From NCBI GenBank assembly GCA_013360215.1, contig JABWCP010000016.1:3185-67184 (forward strand): a DNA stretch of 64,000 bases. The letters are read 5' to 3'. Of this stretch, positions 13,189 through 22,307 are shown piece after piece. The position numbers and the translations under genes are program-made. The notes beneath the pieces were generated by a model. That model was not told where the DNA came from and did not search any database. It saw only the letters and a list, made by a program, of their open reading frames with translations. The DNA comes from a bacterium. GTDB lineage: Bacteria > CLD3 > SB21. The first letter of the stretch is position 1; each line of letters starts with the position of its first letter.

Positions 13189-13784
13189 ACTATGCCTCTA
13201 CCTGGATTAATTAAAACAAATTTTATTCATTTCCGCGCAAATCTCGTTATTTATACTCTGAAAGTCAATATTTTTGGAATGTTATCTGGCGTGAGAGACT
13301 CTAGTTACCCCCATATTTCGCTAAATTAATTTGGCTTGTGATTGGAATAAATATAGGCCTGCAACTTTATGTTTTAAAACACTCACTTATAGTATTATGG
13401 CGTGTAAGTTTGACCGCATACTTTTGGTTTCCGCTAATTTATGAATATATGTGAGATCTATCCCACATGGAGAGGTCAGCAATATCTTTTAGTTAAATTA
13501 TTTTTAATTGGGCTAAAGAAGAACATGCTACATTGTAGCCAATAGGACGAATGCCGATCCTACTATCATGTAGGCATTATTTAAAGAGTGCTCCTTATCG
13601 ACCAATATACGTACCCACCCTTATCCCGAAAGCAGTAAAATAGTTCGCTCGTGCCTGTAGGATTTTCTGGTGAGCATGTAAAGCTTTCCATATTTAGTTG
13701 TTGCCCATTAATTGTTCTCCTATGAATTTTCCAAAAAAAAACCCTTCCTCGATGAGGAAGGGTTCTTGTCAAAGGAAGATATTC
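13189..13784. other. Intergenic region with a possible gene remnant
   Basis: 596 bp with no convincing gene. It holds the gdhA upstream region and several short imperfect hairpins around 13510-13575 (for example GCTAC-ATT-GTAGC near 13530). On the minus strand, just after the PorV-operon terminator, a good AGGAG stands 8 nt before an ATG that opens only four codons (MGNN). A frame shifted by one base continues for about 40 residues to 13581 (contains MESFTCSPENPTGTS and KGGYVYWSIRSTL). This may be a decayed small gene. Confidence 0.35.
13733..13764 (-). terminator. Terminator of the TonB-exported protein-PorV operon
   Basis: On the minus strand AACCCTTCCTC, loop ATC, GAGGAAGGGTT, then a run of T. 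It lies about 20 nt after the stop of the PorV/PorQ gene. Confidence 0.92.
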
Positions 13785-14816
13785 TTAGAATTTAAACCCG
13801 ACGGAAAAACGATGTGTTCCGCCAAGAATTCCCATATTCAAATAACCGTAATCAACAGTAGCTCCAAAGCTGTCGTTGAATTTATAATCAACACCAGCGC
13901 CCATAGTCAAACCGCTCATACCAGCATCGCTACCGGTATTATAGTCACGGTCTTTTTTCAATGTCGAAGTGTAGCCTGCGCGAGCAAAAAACATATTTTG
14001 GAATCCATATTCCAATCCAAAATTTGTACGGCTGGCTTGAAAACTGTTAATATTTTGCTCTAACATACCCGTAATCGAATTCTGTTCGTTACGCATCAAA
14101 TCCATACTGGCACCAAAATTAACAGAAGCCGGCATATTGAAGAATTCAGACTCATATGCCAAATAAGCCGTTTCGTTCGTCAAAGGATCAACTGTAATGG
14201 TTTGTAGGAGACCATCACCTTTGTATGATGCTTGAGGGCCAAGGTTGTTTACAACAAAACCTAACTTCAAACCACGGAAATCGGTGTTATAGGTAAAGCC
14301 AAAATCAAACGCATAATTGCTCGCGCTAACAAGATCAATTTGCGAATTGATAAATTTGACCGTTAAACCGCCGCTTACTCGATCCGTGACTTGTTTGGCA
14401 AAAGTTACACCTACGGAAAGTTCGTAAGGTGCATAATTTCCAATTCCGCCATCAGGATTTGCTTCACTTGTGCGCTGAATATCGCCATAACTCATGTAGT
14501 TAATGCTGGCGCCGATCACACCTGCATCACCCATGGGAAATGTTATCGCACCGTAGTTTGAAGAAATGCCTGCAAAATGATTCAAATAAGAAAAACTAAA
14601 TGTCGGCGAAGTAGCTGCTGACACATTAGCCGGATTCCAATAAATAGCATTGGCACCGGATGTCGTAGTAATGCCCGATTGGCCGAGCGCGACTTCACGT
14701 GCGCCCATCGGAACTTTGAGGAACATAAAGCCGGCCGTACCGCGCTTTTCTTCACCTGCAAAAGCATTGATGGTGTACATCAGTGCCAAAGCTAAGGCTA
14801 ATATCTTATGTTTCAT
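13785..14816 (-). CDS. PorV/PorQ-family outer-membrane barrel protein
   Basis: 343 residues. Signal peptide about 1-20 (MKHKILALALALMYTINAFA), then GTAGFMFLKVPMGAREVALG and ANAIYWNPAN, the hallmark start of PorV/PorQ (UPF0164) proteins. Repeated amphipathic strands follow, ending in FSVGFKF with a terminal Phe typical of outer-membrane barrels. In the type IX secretion system PorV is the shuttle that receives cargo C-terminal domains. Whether this member does so is inferred from the cargo-like gene upstream. The ATG at 14816 follows AAAGGAGAAAGT; a longer frame to 14882 has no such site and would hide the signal peptide. Last gene of its operon, followed by a strong terminator. Confidence 0.85.
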   Translation of the reverse strand: MKHKILALALALMYTINAFAGEEKRGTAGFMFLKVPMGAREVALGQSGITTTSGANAIYWNPANVSAATSPTFSFSYLNHFAGISSNYGAITFPMGDAGVIGASINYMSYGDIQRTSEANPDGGIGNYAPYELSVGVTFAKQVTDRVSGGLTVKFINSQIDLVSASNYAFDFGFTYNTDFRGLKLGFVVNNLGPQASYKGDGLLQTITVDPLTNETAYLAYESEFFNMPASVNFGASMDLMRNEQNSITGMLEQNINSFQASRTNFGLEYGFQNMFFARAGYTSTLKKDRDYNTGSDAGMSGLTMGAGVDYKFNDSFGATVDYGYLNMGILGGTHRFSVGFKF

Positions 14817-14841
14817 ACTTTCTCCTTTTGTGATTAGTAGT

Positions 14842-14862
14842 CCCGCCGACAATGTCGGCGGG
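14842..14862 (-). other. Intercistronic hairpin without T run
   Basis: CCCGCCGAC, loop ATT, GTCGGCGGG: a perfect, GC-rich 9-bp stem between the 1180-residue protein gene and the PorV/PorQ gene. No U run follows, so a full terminator is unlikely. RNA processing or protection of the upstream mRNA is a reasonable guess. Confidence 0.6.
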
Positions 14863-14887
14863 GTTACTTTAAACTGCTTCAATACGA

Positions 14888-17800
14888 TTATCGAATATCC
14901 GGACCGCTAATCGTATATTTCTCCATGATGACAGCAAATTTCACTGTCTTCTTACCATATCCAGGAGCGTCAACTAACGCAATATACATTCCGCTTGCAA
15001 CACCATCACCGGTTTCGTTCAGCAGATCCCATATTTCTGTGCTGGTTTGGGCTGCTGTCGCATCGAAAGTGATATCCAACGGATTGGTATTTAAACGATC
15101 GTTGTTGGAACCTGCAGTATGACGCAACGTGCGCACAAGGTCACCGGCGACAGTAAATATACGGATCGTACATGTACCCGGCAGACCTGTGAATTTGACG
15201 CGTTTGTCAAATAAGCTAGCCTGGTATGTCGAACGGCCGTAGTAAGGATTAGGTACTACAAGAATACCATCCATACCTTTTTTCTTTGCACTGGATGTCG
15301 TAGCCGTTTTACCAGCCGTCGTAGAATAAGTGTATGTATCCGACGGTGTAAGTACGTGATTTACACGGAATTTGAACGTACCATTATCAATCCAGTTGGA
15401 GAAGATATTATGACGTTCTGCTGCCGTGATAGCCGTTCCACCATCTGAGCCGGCACCGCGAGCCGTGACATATAAGCCATGTAACGTCGCCGCATCGGCA
15501 TCCGGCGCTGAAGAAACTGCGTCACCACGATATCCCATCCACATGACAGCGTAGGAAACTTTATCATATGGCGCAGTATAAAAGCCCAGAGCGCGCGTAC
15601 CGCCGCTATAGGAGTTGGTGTCAAAGTATGTATAGTTAAAGCGACCGACACCACCTGAAGTGTAAGAATTAACACCGTCCATTGTCCAAGCATCGAATGT
15701 ATCACGATCGCGGAAGTTCACTTCGATTTGACGCGGAGCGGTATTACCGTCTGTTTCATCCACTTCGAACACGGAGAAAGGAGCCAACGTAGTATCATTA
15801 GAAGCCGCGGTGGAACCTGTGCCGTGTTTGTAAATGACCTGCCATCCCGAAGGATCGCGGCTCATCACGATATCAAAGTCACGACGATCCGGTATCTCAA
15901 CGCCACCGATACCCCAGAATTCTTCAGTAAACTCAATAACTCCACCAAATTCGGTAAGCCCGCCGGGACCTGACCACCAGCGAGTTTCTTTTCCTAATCC
16001 TGTGCGATAAGCACCGTATTCGTATGAAGAACTCTTCCAACCGCTGGCATCTGTTACTTTGATCATAACGCCATCAACGATGCCGAATTCTTCCTGATCC
16101 GGATGACCCGCTTGGGCAATCGTTGTGTTAAATAAGCGATCATCGTACACATAGTCGCTATCATTAGGAGCGGTCTTATCCGGATTATAAACTCCATTAT
16201 TATCCACATCCACGTACGTATCGGGATTGTCCACAAGATTTGAAAAAGCAACCGTCTGATTCGTTGTCGTATTGATCACGCGATACGCGAGTGTTCCTTC
16301 GGCGATACCATGGAGCGGTTTGCCATCCGCCGAATCATTGGTTGTAAACATTTCGATACGGTAGTTATTACCAGTCACTGCACCGGGATTGACCACTTCG
16401 ATTTCGACAACGCCGTCGCTTGGTCCTGCGTGTGTAAGCGTTGAAACTGAACCGTTAAAGTCGTTTCCTGCCACGGCCGCCATCGGCGTAACGGCGGTCA
16501 CATTGGAGCCCGTTGAGGTCTCAAGTGAACGCGGCACAACCGCAAACGGGTAAGGTACATTACCCATCAAAGGATCATTAATTAAAACATTGGCTATAGC
16601 AATGTAAGGCTGAGCATCATATGCCGTAACAGAATAATAATATGTCGTAAGATTGGTTACTTCTTCATCTACATAGCTATAACGCAAACCATTATCAGTG
16701 CCCAGGATTATTTCACGGCTTGAGAGGGTACCATTGGCATCAAAATACAGCTCCCGAATTCCCGTGATACCGTTATTATCATCATATTGCGCGAGCTGCG
16801 TAAAGGAGCCGGGTAAACCGGTCAAACTGCGATATACGCGATATCCTTCGAAGTCCATCACACGATAATCTGCGGTATATGGGGTTTCTGGATTCGTGGT
16901 ACGTATATAGGCTTTATTGGGATCGCCGAAATGATCTTCGGAATATTCCGAATTATTTTTCCAAGTTACAACTACTTTTCCGTCCAAACCGGCCAAGGAC
17001 ATTAGAGGTACATCCGGCGCTGACGGCGCTGCCAAATCCGCATCAAAAATAGTCTGGATCAAGTCATCCGTAGCAAACATTTTAGCTACGGCATTAAGGT
17101 TATCTACCGTACTGTTGGTACGATTTACATTAGCACCGACCACACCGGCCCAAACTTCCTGACGTGCACCGGCAACCACTTCAAACGGGCCTACACCGTG
17201 TAGAATACGTTTATCCGTTGGATTCGCATCAAGGGGGCCGGTCTGCGAAACAGGATCACCAGGGAAGAACCAACCACCATACGAATTTGGGCTAACTGAT
17301 CCGGCATTAGTCAAGCCTCTTAATAAGTTATAACGTTCCGTGTTATTATTAGGATCGCCATTGTTATTGTACGTATTAAGCGTCGTAGCGCCAAGCCAAA
17401 TCGAATCGCCACCTAATGTGCGACTAGCTACTAAACCAATATTTTCATCAATAACTTTCACTTTTTTATGACCAGCGTTTTTGACAGCCAAAAAAGGCGA
17501 AACACTTGCCGCAGAAACTACAGGACCCTGGAAGAAATCAAAACCAACGGCCGAATGAGCATCACTTTCATCAACATTGTATACGAAGCCCAAACCGCGT
17601 GAAGAGTCGGAACCGATTAAATCGTTGCCCGAATTATCCACATCGGCATCCATCCACAGACCCAAATAAGAATTCGGATAATTTGTGTTGGTTTTGTTGT
17701 CAAATATGAACTTCAAAAAGACGCCATCGCCCGCATCACCGCGATCGGCTAATACGATGGATTCGAGGGTAATTTGAATACCAAGACCGGCATAGGGACT

Positions 17801-18430
17801 GGAGGTTGTACCTTCCTGGCTCAGTGTGGTATCCAAATCATTGAAAACAGCCCACGTAATGCCTACACCGCCAGAGGAATATAAGTAGGGATCACCTGAT
17901 GAAGTTTTATCACCAGGCCATGCTAGCCAATCCGCATTGTTTTCACTGGAGGCGTCTCCAGATTTCTCGTCAATATAGTATACTTTATATTCAGGAAGCA
18001 GCGGATCCGCAGCTGTCAACTGTTCAAATGGAACGTTGGAGTTCGTGATCGGACCAGGTTGAAACTCCGTTCCAAACTGAGTCTCAGACACAACCGGTAC
18101 ACCATTCTTGATAGTACCCAACCATGCACCGGCTGCGAACACGATGGTGACATTACTTCCCTGAGGGAATTCGCCTCCTGCGTTATTACCATTTTCGTCG
18201 GCATCCGGCGAATCATACATAAAGGAACCTTGATTACGCATTACGTAATTCCAATTCGTTCCTTTACGTTTAACAAATATAATGTCCACAATATCCGGTT
18301 TACGTAATTTCATTTTAAGACGCGTATTCGCATCTACTTTTGCAATACTTGCAGTATTCATCGTTGCTATTAAGGCGACTACCGCCGCAACGACTACCGC
18401 AGGTATTACTATCCACTTTTTCATACTCAT
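14888..18430 (-). CDS. Large exported protein with type IX-like C-terminal domain
   Basis: 1180 residues. A hydrophobic N-terminal segment (about 5-30) acts as signal peptide. A long extracellular region follows, rich in Asp, Asn, Gly, Ser and Thr. Residues about 473-610 look like a fibronectin type III stretch (KVVVTWKNNSEYSED, FEGYRVYRS, YYYSVTAYD). Residues about 1053-1170 form a FlgD/T9SS-sorting-like domain: ILVVPNPYYG, VKFTGLPGTCTIRIFTVAGD, then GDGVASGMYIALVDA. Such domains direct cargo across the outer membrane through PorV-type machinery. GGAG stands 9 nt before the first ATG. It sits between a TonB receptor and a PorV-like gene, so it may be surface-exposed and work with the receptor. 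Its ligand or activity is unknown. Confidence 0.75.
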   Translation of the reverse strand: MSMKKWIVIPAVVVAAVVALIATMNTASIAKVDANTRLKMKLRKPDIVDIIFVKRKGTNWNYVMRNQGSFMYDSPDADENGNNAGGEFPQGSNVTIVFAAGAWLGTIKNGVPVVSETQFGTEFQPGPITNSNVPFEQLTAADPLLPEYKVYYIDEKSGDASSENNADWLAWPGDKTSSGDPYLYSSGGVGITWAVFNDLDTTLSQEGTTSSPYAGLGIQITLESIVLADRGDAGDGVFLKFIFDNKTNTNYPNSYLGLWMDADVDNSGNDLIGSDSSRGLGFVYNVDESDAHSAVGFDFFQGPVVSAASVSPFLAVKNAGHKKVKVIDENIGLVASRTLGGDSIWLGATTLNTYNNNGDPNNNTERYNLLRGLTNAGSVSPNSYGGWFFPGDPVSQTGPLDANPTDKRILHGVGPFEVVAGARQEVWAGVVGANVNRTNSTVDNLNAVAKMFATDDLIQTIFDADLAAPSAPDVPLMSLAGLDGKVVVTWKNNSEYSEDHFGDPNKAYIRTTNPETPYTADYRVMDFEGYRVYRSLTGLPGSFTQLAQYDDNNGITGIRELYFDANGTLSSREIILGTDNGLRYSYVDEEVTNLTTYYYSVTAYDAQPYIAIANVLINDPLMGNVPYPFAVVPRSLETSTGSNVTAVTPMAAVAGNDFNGSVSTLTHAGPSDGVVEIEVVNPGAVTGNNYRIEMFTTNDSADGKPLHGIAEGTLAYRVINTTTNQTVAFSNLVDNPDTYVDVDNNGVYNPDKTAPNDSDYVYDDRLFNTTIAQAGHPDQEEFGIVDGVMIKVTDASGWKSSSYEYGAYRTGLGKETRWWSGPGGLTEFGGVIEFTEEFWGIGGVEIPDRRDFDIVMSRDPSGWQVIYKHGTGSTAASNDTTLAPFSVFEVDETDGNTAPRQIEVNFRDRDTFDAWTMDGVNSYTSGGVGRFNYTYFDTNSYSGGTRALGFYTAPYDKVSYAVMWMGYRGDAVSSAPDADAATLHGLYVTARGAGSDGGTAITAAERHNIFSNWIDNGTFKFRVNHVLTPSDTYTYSTTAGKTATTSSAKKKGMDGILVVPNPYYGRSTYQASLFDKRVKFTGLPGTCTIRIFTVAGDLVRTLRHTAGSNNDRLNTNPLDITFDATAAQTSTEIWDLLNETGDGVASGMYIALVDAPGYGKKTVKFAVIMEKYTISGPDIR

Positions 18431-18473
18431 TGTATAACTCCTGTATTTGATAACTATCTTCGCTTGTAATATA

Positions 18474-18501
18474 GAGGGTGCTTTCGGATGAAAGCACCCT
18501 C
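18474..18501 (-). other. Intercistronic hairpin between receptor and exported-protein genes
   Basis: GAGGGTGCTTTC, 4-nt loop, and the exact complement (12-bp stem), starting 12 nt after the receptor stop codon. No T run follows on the minus strand. It resembles the hairpin in the next gap but with unrelated sequence. Confidence 0.65.
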
Positions 18502-18512
18502 CGGATCATACA

Positions 18513-21449
18513 TTAGAAATTGAAGATAACGCCAAGACGTGCTTGACGGGGTGTATCCCAACTAAAGCCATCATGATGATTGACATCATATTGTGGCAAT
18601 CTACGTGCTTTTTCTACTTTTGAATAGTCGTTCCATTCAGGCGAATTGATAAAACCTGAATCATCAGCACGACCACTACTTGCAAATACCGTGTTCACGT
18701 TTTTACGATCAAGAAGGTTTAACACTTGGACGTAAAGATTGACATTCATGTTCTCATTGATATAAAACGTCTTATCCGCTTTCATATCAATGCGGAATGT
18801 CCACGGTGAGCTTTGTGAATTACGGCGTGCTGTAGCATTACCTGCCGGTACACCAGTTTGCTGGATCGCTACTACCGTCGTCGGAGTATACGGGAAACCA
18901 CTACCAGCGGACACGAGGAAGTTTAGTCCTGCATTCTCAATGATATTCATACCTCCTACGGACGGGCCCTCACCTTTACCATTACGCACATCTACATTGG
19001 CATTAATGTTGTGACGTTGATCAAAATTCAAAGGGGCATTAAAACGGGCCGTGTTGAATCCAAGCCAGGAAGCACGGAAATTAGAATTTGTTCCCGAACC
19101 TGACCCTGTAGCTGTCTGCAGAGTATAAGCCAAACGACCGGAGAATTTACCTATACGACGGGCCTCAAGTGAAATATTCACGCCCTGTATAACGCCGGCA
19201 TCCTCGTTATCATAGATGATTAATCCATTGGGTATCGAAGTGATCGGGCTTGAATTCACAAGATCCGTAATATCCTTGTAGTATGCTCCGACGTCAAGTG
19301 CTACCTTATCACTCAACGCACGGCGAAGTCCGACTTCATATTGTGTGCTCTTTTCAGCTTGAAGATTGGGATTTCCCAATGTCGTTGCAAACGGAGCATT
19401 TAACGATTGTTTTTCGAGAAATGCCGGGGAAACATACAAATCTTGCAAATTTGGCTGTTGGAAGAATCTACCATAGCTCATACGGAACTGCGTTTTTTCA
19501 GAAATCGGGAAGCTGATCGAAAAACGCGGAGAAATACGATGGTCTGTCTTAGCTGAAGTATAGTCTTCTGAGCCTAAAACTTGATCAGCACCGGTAGGAT
19601 TACCTAGATCTTTAACACGTTTCACACCGGGGTTAAACGCGTCATAACGAATACCAGCACGCAATACTAATCCTTCGTATTCTAGTTTGTCTTGAACAAA
19701 CGTCGAGAAACTTGTCGGATGCGGAGGTCCCATAATCGGAGTTTCCGCATTTAGATTATCAGAATTAACCTTCTTAAATTTGATTTTGCCAGATGAAGTG
19801 ACATAGCCTTTGTATCCGATGTTATCATTGGAACCTGTAACCGGATTGTCAATATCAAGGATATTCAAATAACGAATCGTGTGATAAAAATAATCCGCAC
19901 CAATTTTGATCTGATTGTGCTTATCCAATTGGTTGGTATAGTTGGCTTTGAACGCAATATACTGGTCATCATCACGACGATAATTGAGTATGCCGTTATT
20001 CGGATCAAAAAGGAGATTATCCGCTTCGTACGTTCTAAAACCTGTTGAACCTTTTTGACGATCCGCATATTCACCCACATTATCAAACTCAAGAAAATCA
20101 TTCATGAGCTTACGGGTATTGGAAAAATAGTTGATCCCCAAATCAAAAAAGCTGTTTTGATCCATAGTATAGGTTGCTATAGTACCTACGTTTAGGTTTT
20201 GAATCTCACGGCGAAGATTGTCGGCGAGAGACAACGTTCTGGCAACCGTATTGCTACGGCGGACCGTATTACTATAATTACCCGATACGTCAATTCGCAG
20301 TTTGTTCGGCATTACGTCAAAGGTTAACTTGGCTTGAAGGTTTGTTCCTCTATCGGAATTAATACCCGCGCCGGAAAGACCGTCAGGACGTGCACCTTTT
20401 TTATATTTTACATTGCCGTTTTTGTCAGTTTTCCAAATAACGGTATCAATCGGTACTTTAGGCGTACTACTAGGCGTATCACCATCACCATCATGGTCAT
20501 ACAAACGGGCACCTTTTTCAAGTTCAAACTCAGGATAGCCCCAAACACTAGGTTCCGCATCATCTATTTCACGCACTTCACCGGAAACAAAGAACCGAAT
20601 CATGTTATTATTCGGAATCAACGGTCCACCGAAACCCGCACTCAACACTTTATAACCATAGGTTTCCGCAATACCGAGACCGGCCGGATCACCGACAGCT
20701 TCGATATTACCGCTATAACGTTGCGAGCCTGATTTCGTTGTCACTTGAATAATACCCGATTGATTACGTCCGTATTCCGCATCAAAACCACCAGTAATCA
20801 CTTGCACTTCTTCCACGGCACCCGAAGGTACATTGGCATTGGAAGTACCGGTCAAAAGGTTGTTTTGTTGGAAACCGTCCATATATACACCGGTTTCAGA
20901 CGAACGACCGCCGCGAACATTGACATTGGCAGTACCACCGTCAAGGTTACGGGTATTGCTGACCACGATACCGACGCCAAGGTTAGCCGCCGCCTGGAAA
21001 CCACGAACCGGCAGGTTCTTGATTTCTTCAGCCGTCGTAACGGACATCGTCATGGTTTGATCTTTTTGGATCAAAGGACGCTCGGCAACAACTACCTGCT
21101 CTTCGCCAGATACCGACGTAGCAGAAATTTCGAAGTCCAAACGTGTCGTAAAGTCCGGAATCACACGGACGTTTTGTTTGGTCAACTTCGTGTAACCGAT
21201 CATGCTTGTGGCCACCGTATAAACACCGGCGGGAACGTTGAGGATCGTGTACTCACCTTTGGCGTTGGTCGTTGCGCCCATGGAAGTACCCTCGATCAGG
21301 ATATTCACACCCGGAAGTGCGTCACCCGATTCCTTGTCTTTTACCACACCGGTGATCTTGCCCGTATTACCTGCAAACAGGTACATCGGAAGCAAGAACA
21401 CCATTGTTGCCACCAGCAACAATCGTTTTAGTCTCGTACTACCAGACAT
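18513..21449 (-). CDS. TonB-dependent outer-membrane receptor (Oar/SusC-like)
   Basis: 978 residues. Signal peptide ending near YLFAG; a carboxypeptidase-regulatory-like domain (about 28-110: GKITGVVKDKESGDALPGVN, then TSMGATTNAKGEYTILNVPAG); a plug domain (VNVRGGRSSETGVYMDGF, VEEVQVITGGFDAEYGRNQ); and a 22-strand-type barrel ending in LGVIFNF with terminal Phe. It imports or binds an unknown substrate at the expense of the proton gradient via TonB. The ATG at 21449 is chosen because AAGGAGGAC precedes it and gives a normal signal peptide. A second in-frame ATG at 21533, also next to AAAGGAGG, would add 28 residues. First gene of a three-gene operon. Confidence 0.92.
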   Translation of the reverse strand: MSGSTRLKRLLLVATMVFLLPMYLFAGNTGKITGVVKDKESGDALPGVNILIEGTSMGATTNAKGEYTILNVPAGVYTVATSMIGYTKLTKQNVRVIPDFTTRLDFEISATSVSGEEQVVVAERPLIQKDQTMTMSVTTAEEIKNLPVRGFQAAANLGVGIVVSNTRNLDGGTANVNVRGGRSSETGVYMDGFQQNNLLTGTSNANVPSGAVEEVQVITGGFDAEYGRNQSGIIQVTTKSGSQRYSGNIEAVGDPAGLGIAETYGYKVLSAGFGGPLIPNNNMIRFFVSGEVREIDDAEPSVWGYPEFELEKGARLYDHDGDGDTPSSTPKVPIDTVIWKTDKNGNVKYKKGARPDGLSGAGINSDRGTNLQAKLTFDVMPNKLRIDVSGNYSNTVRRSNTVARTLSLADNLRREIQNLNVGTIATYTMDQNSFFDLGINYFSNTRKLMNDFLEFDNVGEYADRQKGSTGFRTYEADNLLFDPNNGILNYRRDDDQYIAFKANYTNQLDKHNQIKIGADYFYHTIRYLNILDIDNPVTGSNDNIGYKGYVTSSGKIKFKKVNSDNLNAETPIMGPPHPTSFSTFVQDKLEYEGLVLRAGIRYDAFNPGVKRVKDLGNPTGADQVLGSEDYTSAKTDHRISPRFSISFPISEKTQFRMSYGRFFQQPNLQDLYVSPAFLEKQSLNAPFATTLGNPNLQAEKSTQYEVGLRRALSDKVALDVGAYYKDITDLVNSSPITSIPNGLIIYDNEDAGVIQGVNISLEARRIGKFSGRLAYTLQTATGSGSGTNSNFRASWLGFNTARFNAPLNFDQRHNINANVDVRNGKGEGPSVGGMNIIENAGLNFLVSAGSGFPYTPTTVVAIQQTGVPAGNATARRNSQSSPWTFRIDMKADKTFYINENMNVNLYVQVLNLLDRKNVNTVFASSGRADDSGFINSPEWNDYSKVEKARRLPQYDVNHHDGFSWDTPRQARLGVIFNF

Positions 21450-22307
21450 AATGTCCTCCTTCTGTTGGTTATTAAGAGCGTGTACGATGAATGAATTTTT
21501 TTCGATAAGTTTAGTAATCATATCTTTTCTCATTTACCTCCTTTGTAAATGCACATAGATAAGAAATGTGTTTTTCCGACTTGACATCTGCTTCTGAGAT
21601 TAATTCGACCTACCCTTTCGTTTTTTTGTGAAAGAATCAGCACTACGGTTACAAGCGTGCCGCCCTCTCCTTCACATCATACTCAAGGATACTGCTTTCA
21701 GAGAACAGTTTTAAGAGAACGTTATTAAAAAGATTTGTTTACAACCCGGCAACAAGCTTTTTGAAAAGACTAGGGACACTTATTGCACAAGATAAGGTTT
21801 TACAATAAACAATATAGGCGGCCTTAAAATTATTGTCAAGCTTTTTTTGGGAACCCGGTTTTACTTGGTTTTAAGACCACGATGGGCACTTTGAGCTAAT
21901 CAATAAAACCTTAATACCTAGATAATATTCCCGCCCTAATTACAAAACTACCGAAAAAACGAAAGAAATAAGTTTTCCACCCCCTTCTAAATTTTTTAAA
22001 TTTTTTCATTCATACGTAGAATCCGGACATGACACGCTCTTTTCATGCACATATCCGCAATACCGGTACCGTAATAATAGAAGTACGATGCGTTGTGGTT
22101 TTATTACAAAGTTTTTTAAAAAGATTTTGCGCCAACACGATTTAATCTATATATTAGCCGCCCCAAAGCGAAATGATACGCTTTTTCGTGTTATTTAGTA
22201 TGGATATACTATAATAATACAGTGCTAGTTTACTAAAAGATGATTTCCTGATTAACAGGAAACTTATTTAAATTTTGATTTTGTTAGGCTTATAAGGAAA
22301 TAACGGC
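21450..22307. other. Long AT-rich divergent intergenic region
   Basis: About 860 bp between the TonB receptor (minus) and smc (plus) without a credible coding frame. It should hold both promoters. A TATAAT at 22210-22215 is a possible smc -10, but no good -35 is paired with it. TTTCCTG-N5-CAGGAAA forms a small hairpin at about 22243-22261, in the presumed smc leader. No known RNA gene was recognised. Confidence 0.6.

What the first reader, a model, noticed from the sequence alone, without database searches (positions are those of the whole stretch)
13785..21449. Three-gene operon: TonB receptor, cargo-like exported protein, PorV/PorQ barrel
Seen: the three genes lie in one run with short gaps and one terminator at the end. 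The middle protein ends in a FlgD/T9SS-like domain and the last has the PorV/PorQ hallmark start. Known: in the type IX secretion system PorV binds cargo C-terminal domains. Inference: the operon encodes a dedicated surface module in which the PorV-like barrel receives the 1180-residue protein, and this protein works with the receptor. This grouping may be a lineage-specific system that has not been described.
Basis: partly seen in the sequence, partly recalled or inferred. Interest (0 to 1): 0.6.

Follow-up and report, generated by a model that had tools for sequence, protein, structure and literature searches.

The report
Receptor, barrel-anchored surface protein operon
Three neighbouring genes, found in the same order in at least nine bacterial phyla, most likely build an outer-membrane uptake complex in which a large surface protein is exported by a type IX-like secretion pore and held on the cell by its own dedicated barrel protein beside a TonB-driven receptor.

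Summary
The three genes are real, lie on the - strand in one run, and end at a strong terminator. They encode a TonB-dependent receptor (TBDT), a 1180-residue exported protein (called MID here) with a type A-like T9SS C-terminal domain (CTD), and a PorV/PorQ-family barrel. It is the opposite: TBDT>MID>PorV, same order and strand, in 56 of 79 loci fetched by MID alone, from nine or so FCB-related groups. The Sov/SprA translocon is present in 35 of 37 such genomes and in the window's own. The GldL/GldM motor is found only in the four Bacteroidota carriers. New here: MIDs next to a PorV carry a roughly 9-residue tail beyond the CTD, consensus [EQ]xL[DN]x[FY]-COOH (59/64 linked, 2/21 unlinked; changes with the linkage about six times). 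A CTD-PorV read-through fusion from a relative folds with pLDDT 93.4 and pTM 0.89, implying a defined interface. The MID N-terminal half is predicted as a beta-supersandwich, as in carbohydrate-active enzymes. Best reading: MID is held uncleaved on its own PorV-like barrel, as PorU/PorV and PorZ/PorQ are, as the surface subunit of a SusCD-like receptor. The role in uptake is inferred.

The parts
18513..21449 (-). TonB-dependent receptor with CarboxypepD_reg-like N-terminal extension (978 aa)
   Evidence: Pfam PF13715, PF07715, PF00593; no SusC-type NCBIfam hit
14888..18430 (-). MID: 1180-aa exported protein; signal peptide, beta-supersandwich N-half, FN3-like middle (by sequence pattern), T9SS type A-like CTD and C-terminal tail
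   Evidence: 58- and 60-sequence alignments A3 and A4
17021..18295 (-). MID residues ~46-470: predicted beta-supersandwich domain (as in GH94, GH116 and glucodextranase domain N)
   Evidence: AlphaFold2 model, VIA-align Z 19.1, 3.0 A over 238 residues
14927..15280 (-). MID residues ~1051-1168: type A-like CTD (VVPNPY...TIRIFTVAGDLV...ASGMYI...VKFAVI)
   Evidence: alignment A1; PorZ 5m11 and PorU 6za2 hits
14891..14926 (-). MID residues 1169-1180: C-terminal tail beyond the CTD (ends ...SGPDIR), not aromatic-ended in this lineage
   Evidence: tail present in PorV-linked and absent from unlinked paralogues
13785..14816 (-). PorV/PorQ-family outer-membrane barrel (343 aa)
   Evidence: NF033709 197 bits, PF19572; profile hits PorV 6h3i_F at 2.1e-27
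13737..13767 (-). intrinsic terminator closing the operon
   Evidence: strand folding -23.8 kcal/mol, z -3.83
21811..21839 (-). candidate promoter TTGACA-17-TATATT
   Evidence: consensus match 11/12 only

Best explanation
The operon encodes a surface receptor complex. (1) MID crosses the inner membrane by its signal peptide and the outer membrane through the genome's Sov/SprA pore, recognised by its CTD. (2) Instead of the general PorV it is taken up by its own PorV-like barrel. The CTD, with its extra C-terminal tail, stays bound to the extracellular loops of that barrel and is not cleaved, so the barrel is a permanent anchor, as PorV is for PorU and PorQ for PorZ. (3) The roughly 1000-residue exterior part sits beside the TonB-dependent receptor made from the same mRNA and acts as its substrate-capturing subunit, comparable in role to SusD beside SusC. 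The supersandwich N-domain suggests a glycan ligand. Shown here: the genes, their conserved order, the translocon, the tail, and the family assignments. Predicted: the CTD-barrel interface and the N-domain fold. Inferred: the lack of cleavage, the complex with the receptor, and the uptake role.
For: Order and strand conserved in 56 complete triads among 79 loci fetched by MID alone, median gaps about 20 bp, across at least nine phyla; also three triads in one close relative and two in a class-mate. Tree distances of TBDT, MID body, CTD and PorV correlate at 0.61-0.85, against a null maximum of 0.23. SprA in 35/37 carrier genomes and in all 9 phylum genomes; across 41 genomes SprA and MID/CTD co-occur 16/16 versus 2/25. 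CTD-PorV fusion of relative L116: pLDDT 93.4, pTM 0.89; independently placed domains would give about 0.67-0.70 by my estimate. The nearest fold is PorV from the RemA-CTD complex, 8gl6_F. The tail is ordered in the fusion (block mean 89) but disordered in MID alone (47), in different proteins. Tail and linkage: 59/64 versus 2/21, p 2e-12; six co-changing branches. The only PDB sequence matches of the CTD are PorZ and PorU, whose CTDs are known to stay uncleaved on PorQ and PorV (PMC10202324). Most carriers lack SusD (39/46).
Against: No experiment. No predicted contact between MID and the TBDT was tested. Five linked members lack the tail, and in the window's family the tail does not end in an aromatic residue. 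The supersandwich fold is widespread and does not prove glycan binding. Flanking genes show no recurrent polysaccharide-utilisation genes.
Confidence: 0.55

Rival explanations
1. Dedicated shuttle, not anchor: the PorV-like barrel extracts MID from Sov and hands it to a PorU-type sortase, which removes the CTD and releases or covalently attaches MID. The receptor is merely co-regulated.
For: This is the known route of type A CTD proteins (PMC10202324, PMC12618676). PorU above cut-off in 37/46 carriers, a C25 PorU-like protein in the window's genome, and the CTD belongs to the type A kind.
Against: The extra conserved C-terminal tail is tied to PorV linkage. The strongest CTD relatives are the uncleaved PorZ and PorU. 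A shuttle that recycles would not need one copy per cargo. The window's own family lacks a canonical PorU.
Confidence: 0.2
2. The receptor takes part in export: with no GldL/M motor, the TonB-dependent protein energises or forms the exit path of MID, as proposed for Oar and PopC of Myxococcus (PMC6434023), and the PorV-like barrel receives MID.
For: TBDT is the first gene, always adjacent to MID. GldL and GldM are absent from 42/42 non-Bacteroidota carriers. The CarboxypepD_reg extension is Oar-like.
Against: SprA is present in nearly all carriers and is the natural exit. The triad also occurs in Flavobacteriales that have the motor. Solo MID paralogues with CTDs exist without a TBDT.
Confidence: 0.1
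3. MID is mainly a surface enzyme or adhesin, held by the barrel, that works independently of the receptor.
For: The N-domain fold is shared with domains of glycoside phosphorylases and hydrolases and with GH174. Solo and tandem MIDs occur without a receptor.
Against: Receptor linkage is as conserved as barrel linkage. The matched supersandwich domain is usually the non-catalytic part of those enzymes (from general knowledge).
Confidence: 0.1

Closest known systems
PorU-PorV and PorZ-PorQ of the T9SS attachment complex
   Same: CTD protein kept uncleaved on a PorV/PorQ-family barrel (PMC10202324); MID's CTD finds PorZ and PorU in the PDB; barrel in the same NCBIfam family
   Different: A TBDT is added, MID is not a sortase or PorZ-like, there are several copies per genome, a C-terminal tail extends past the CTD, and most carriers lack the GldL/M motor
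Type B CTD substrates with cognate PorP/SprF-like barrels
   Same: Cargo gene next to the gene of its own barrel, and the barrel proposed as anchor (PMC9143113, PMC12618676)
   Different: Here the CTD is type A-like and the barrel is PorV/PorQ family, with a TBDT in place of a PorE-like lipoprotein
SusCD (RagAB) uptake complexes
   Same: TonB-dependent barrel encoded beside a surface-exposed partner
   Different: TBDT does not match SusC models; the partner is not SusD and not a lipoprotein; SusD found in only 7/46 carriers
BamG-BamH of the Bacteroidota BAM complex
   Same: FadL-family barrel holding a large surface protein through its extracellular loops (PMC12578637, PMC12611786)
   Different: BamH is a lipoprotein, no CTD; function is barrel assembly

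Membership tests
PorV/PorQ family barrel (NF033709) | Score above curated cut-off over full length | tested here: met
   197 bits vs 90, positions 1-326 of 326
PorV/PorQ family barrel (NF033709) | Being the general PorV or PorQ equivalog (NF033710, NF033711) | tested here: not met
   88 bits vs 250, 129 bits vs 220
T9SS type A CTD substrate | C-terminal domain of TIGR04183/PF18962 above cut-off | tested here: inconclusive
   Not met for the window protein; met for homologues L109, L123 and L159; near-invariant Lys near the CTD end present (A4)
T9SS type A CTD substrate | Sov/SprA translocon in the genome | tested here: met
   G000:C4, 674 bits summed, cut-off 200
T9SS type A CTD substrate | GldL/GldM (PorL/PorM) motor in the genome | tested here: not met
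   No match in G000 or 41 other non-Bacteroidota carriers; found in all 4 Bacteroidota carriers, so the search works
T9SS type A CTD substrate | CTD needed for export, and cleaved or retained at the surface | not testable with these tools
   needs experiment
SusCD complex | SusC-family TBDT with SusD lipoprotein | tested here: not met
   no SusC-type NCBIfam hit among 13 listed; no PF07980 in G000
TonB-dependent receptor | Plug and beta-barrel domains above cut-off | tested here: met
   PF07715 47.8 bits, PF00593 106.8 bits

The most novel reading that the evidence does not exclude
A third architecture of TonB-dependent surface receptors, ancestral to the FCB superphylum: the surface subunit is not a lipoprotein but a T9SS-type CTD protein locked by a C-terminal [EQ]xL[DN]x[FY] tail onto a dedicated PorV-like barrel, and the export pore works without the GldLM motor.
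Probability: 0.4. Interest if true: 0.8.

Novelty: new variant of a known kind. Interest (0 to 1): 0.62.

Why it matters
It would show that retention of a T9SS cargo on its own PorV-like barrel, known from PorU/PorV and PorZ/PorQ and suspected as a general principle (PMC10202324), is a widespread way of building surface complexes, and it names a short tail that may do it. It would also give many uncultured phyla without SusD a plausible counterpart of SusCD uptake. The widespread Sov pore without GldL/M raises the question of what powers it.

Tried and rejected
Lineage-specific module: rejected. Chance adjacency: rejected (56 triads; the barrel family has about 14 members in this genome). Link to polysaccharide-utilisation genes in flanks: no recurrent family of that kind; recurrent flank families were few and mostly clade-specific. 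Direct coupling between CTD and PorV: not attempted, too few paired sequences. A read-through fusion of the window's own MID and PorV was not possible because they are in different frames, so relative L116 was used. Pfam and NCBIfam found no named domain for the MID body. Two members counted as tail-less (L102, L118) have tails; a pattern in my script misplaced them, and the table was corrected. Literature searches for a description of the triad found none, which covers only open-licence full texts.

Full report
What is there. The window lies in a 3.72-Mb draft genome (contig C16) of a small phylum with nine genomes held. Three - strand genes form one run: TBDT 18513-21449, MID 14888-18430 and PorV-like 13785-14816, with gaps of 82 and 71 bp, and a strong intrinsic terminator at 13767-13737. 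The neighbours are unrelated: a glutamate dehydrogenase-like gene downstream and an SMC gene upstream on the other strand (by sequence).

Families. TBDT has CarbopepD_reg_2, Plug and TonB_dep_Rec domains and is not a SusC-type receptor by NCBIfam. The third protein is a PorV/PorQ-family barrel (NF033709, 197 bits vs 90) but not the PorV or PorQ equivalog; a profile of its family finds the solved PorV 6h3i at 2e-27. MID has no Pfam domain. Its last ~120 residues carry the pattern VVPNPY...TIRIFTVAGDLV...ASGMYI...VKFAVI, aligned across 58-60 relatives. The family profile finds exactly two solved proteins: PorZ (5m11, E 0.004) and PorU (6za2, E 0.05), both at their CTDs. Homologues reach the T9SS type A cut-off.

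Conservation. I searched 84,980 species genomes with a MID alignment alone, so neighbours played no part in the choice of loci. Of the 79 loci kept, 56 hold a complete TBDT>MID>PorV run in that order and on one strand, with gaps mostly under 70 bp. Most of the rest are cut by contig ends. Carriers include Zixiibacteriota, Ignavibacteria, Marinimicrobia, Kryptonia, Latescibacterota, WOR-3, Calditrichota, Delongbacteria and Flavobacteriales/Cryomorphaceae. Within the phylum one genome holds three triads and another two. Distances among TBDT, MID body, CTD and PorV trees correlate at 0.61-0.85. Part of that reflects species descent.

Secretion machinery. Sov/SprA is present in all nine genomes of the phylum and in 35 of 37 carriers elsewhere. 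In a mixed set of 41 genomes SprA above cut-off and MID/CTD matches (E < 1e-10) coincide: 16 of 16 with SprA, 2 of 25 without; in distant genomes those matches are mostly to the CTD part. PorU is above cut-off in 37 of 46 carriers, but the window's family has only a 1744-aa C25 PorU-like protein followed by its own PorV. GldM and GldL are found in all four Bacteroidota carriers and in none of the other 42. So the module travels with the Sov pore, not with the known motor. SusD occurs in 7 of 46.

The tail. MIDs that are followed by a PorV gene extend about nine residues past the last CTD strand and usually end in F or Y; the consensus from the C-terminus is [EQ]xL[DN]x[FY]-COOH. Unlinked MIDs and other CTD proteins in the same loci end where ordinary type A CTDs end. 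Counted on 85 distinct proteins and corrected for two misread rows, 59 of 64 linked and 2 of 21 unlinked have the tail (p 2e-12). On the MID tree, linkage changes about eight times and the tail about seven, six of them on the same branch. One linked clade (L077, L079, L127, L154, L158) has no tail, and the window's family has a tail ending in PDIR or PDVR. The parsimony used a midpoint root, so the numbers are approximate.

Structure. MID alone: pLDDT 75.5, pTM 0.73, tail disordered. Its N-terminal half (46-470) matches the beta-supersandwich of glucodextranase, dextran dextrinase, GH94 and GH116 enzymes at Z 16-19 (3.0-4 A over about 240-265 residues); the Foldseek hit to PorZ covers the CTD. 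To test the CTD-barrel contact I used a relative (L116) whose MID and PorV genes are in the same frame, reading its stop codon as Gly. The 464-residue fusion gives pLDDT 93.4 and pTM 0.89 with a disordered linker. If the two domains were placed independently, pTM should be near 0.67-0.70; 0.89 needs low inter-domain error (my estimate). Residues of the tail are ordered in the fusion. The best solved match is PorV from the RemA-CTD-bound translocon, 8gl6.

Mechanism. In known T9SS, PorV loops bind type A CTDs inside the SprA pore and carry them out (PMC10994853). PorU and PorZ keep their CTDs and stay on PorV and PorQ, and a protective role of cognate barrels has been suggested (PMC10202324). 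Type B cargo has cognate PorP/SprF-like barrels encoded next door (PMC12618676, PMC9143113). The triad fits that logic with a type A-like CTD, its own PorV-like barrel and a TonB receptor. The most economical reading is a permanently anchored surface subunit beside the receptor, perhaps for glycans. Rivals are a recycling shuttle, an Oar-like export role of the receptor (PMC6434023), and an independent surface enzyme.

Limits. No structure of the full complex, no PAE, and no negative-control fusion. The distribution rests on one scan that kept the best 80 of more than 570 hits. I found no description of this triad in the open literature searched, but that does not exclude one.

Noticed in passing
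G000 and carriers G041-G073: Sov/SprA (and usually PorU) occurs in many non-Bacteroidota FCB genomes without any GldL or GldM match; what powers the pore there is unknown.
   Followed up: partly
L049:6990-8096 (G000:C11): A gene for a PorV-like barrel (368 aa) sits inside the ATP synthase operon, between the gamma and beta subunit genes (named from their start sequences).
   Followed up: no
L055:6353-13328 (G000:C13): A second kind of triad in the same genome, in another order: TBDT (772 aa), PorV-like (388 aa), then a 1036-aa FG-GAP/beta-propeller protein with a T9SS CTD above the Pfam cut-off.
   Followed up: partly
L060:8878-15126 and L057:6794-9468 (G000:C28, C12): Two more CTD-protein/PorV pairs: a 1729-aa C25 PorU-like protein with its PorV, and a 567-aa sortilin-like CTD protein overlapping a PorV gene.
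   Followed up: partly
L071-L073, L080, L087, L152: Tandem arrays of MID paralogues without receptor or barrel and without the C-terminal tail, some beside a ~1037-aa protein of unknown family.
   Followed up: partly
G000 contigs C11, C14, C33, C41: Several MID paralogues are cut by contig ends, so the draft assembly seems to break in these repeated genes and may hide further triads.
   Followed up: no
window:60368-63625: 1085-aa sortilin/BNR-repeat protein, of the kind often exported by T9SS; its C-terminus was not examined.
   Followed up: no
window:27018-30443: Sensor with two-component propeller repeats and a histidine kinase domain; large proteins followed by response-regulator-like genes lie beside MID triads in relatives L070 and L074 (start sequences only).
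   Followed up: no
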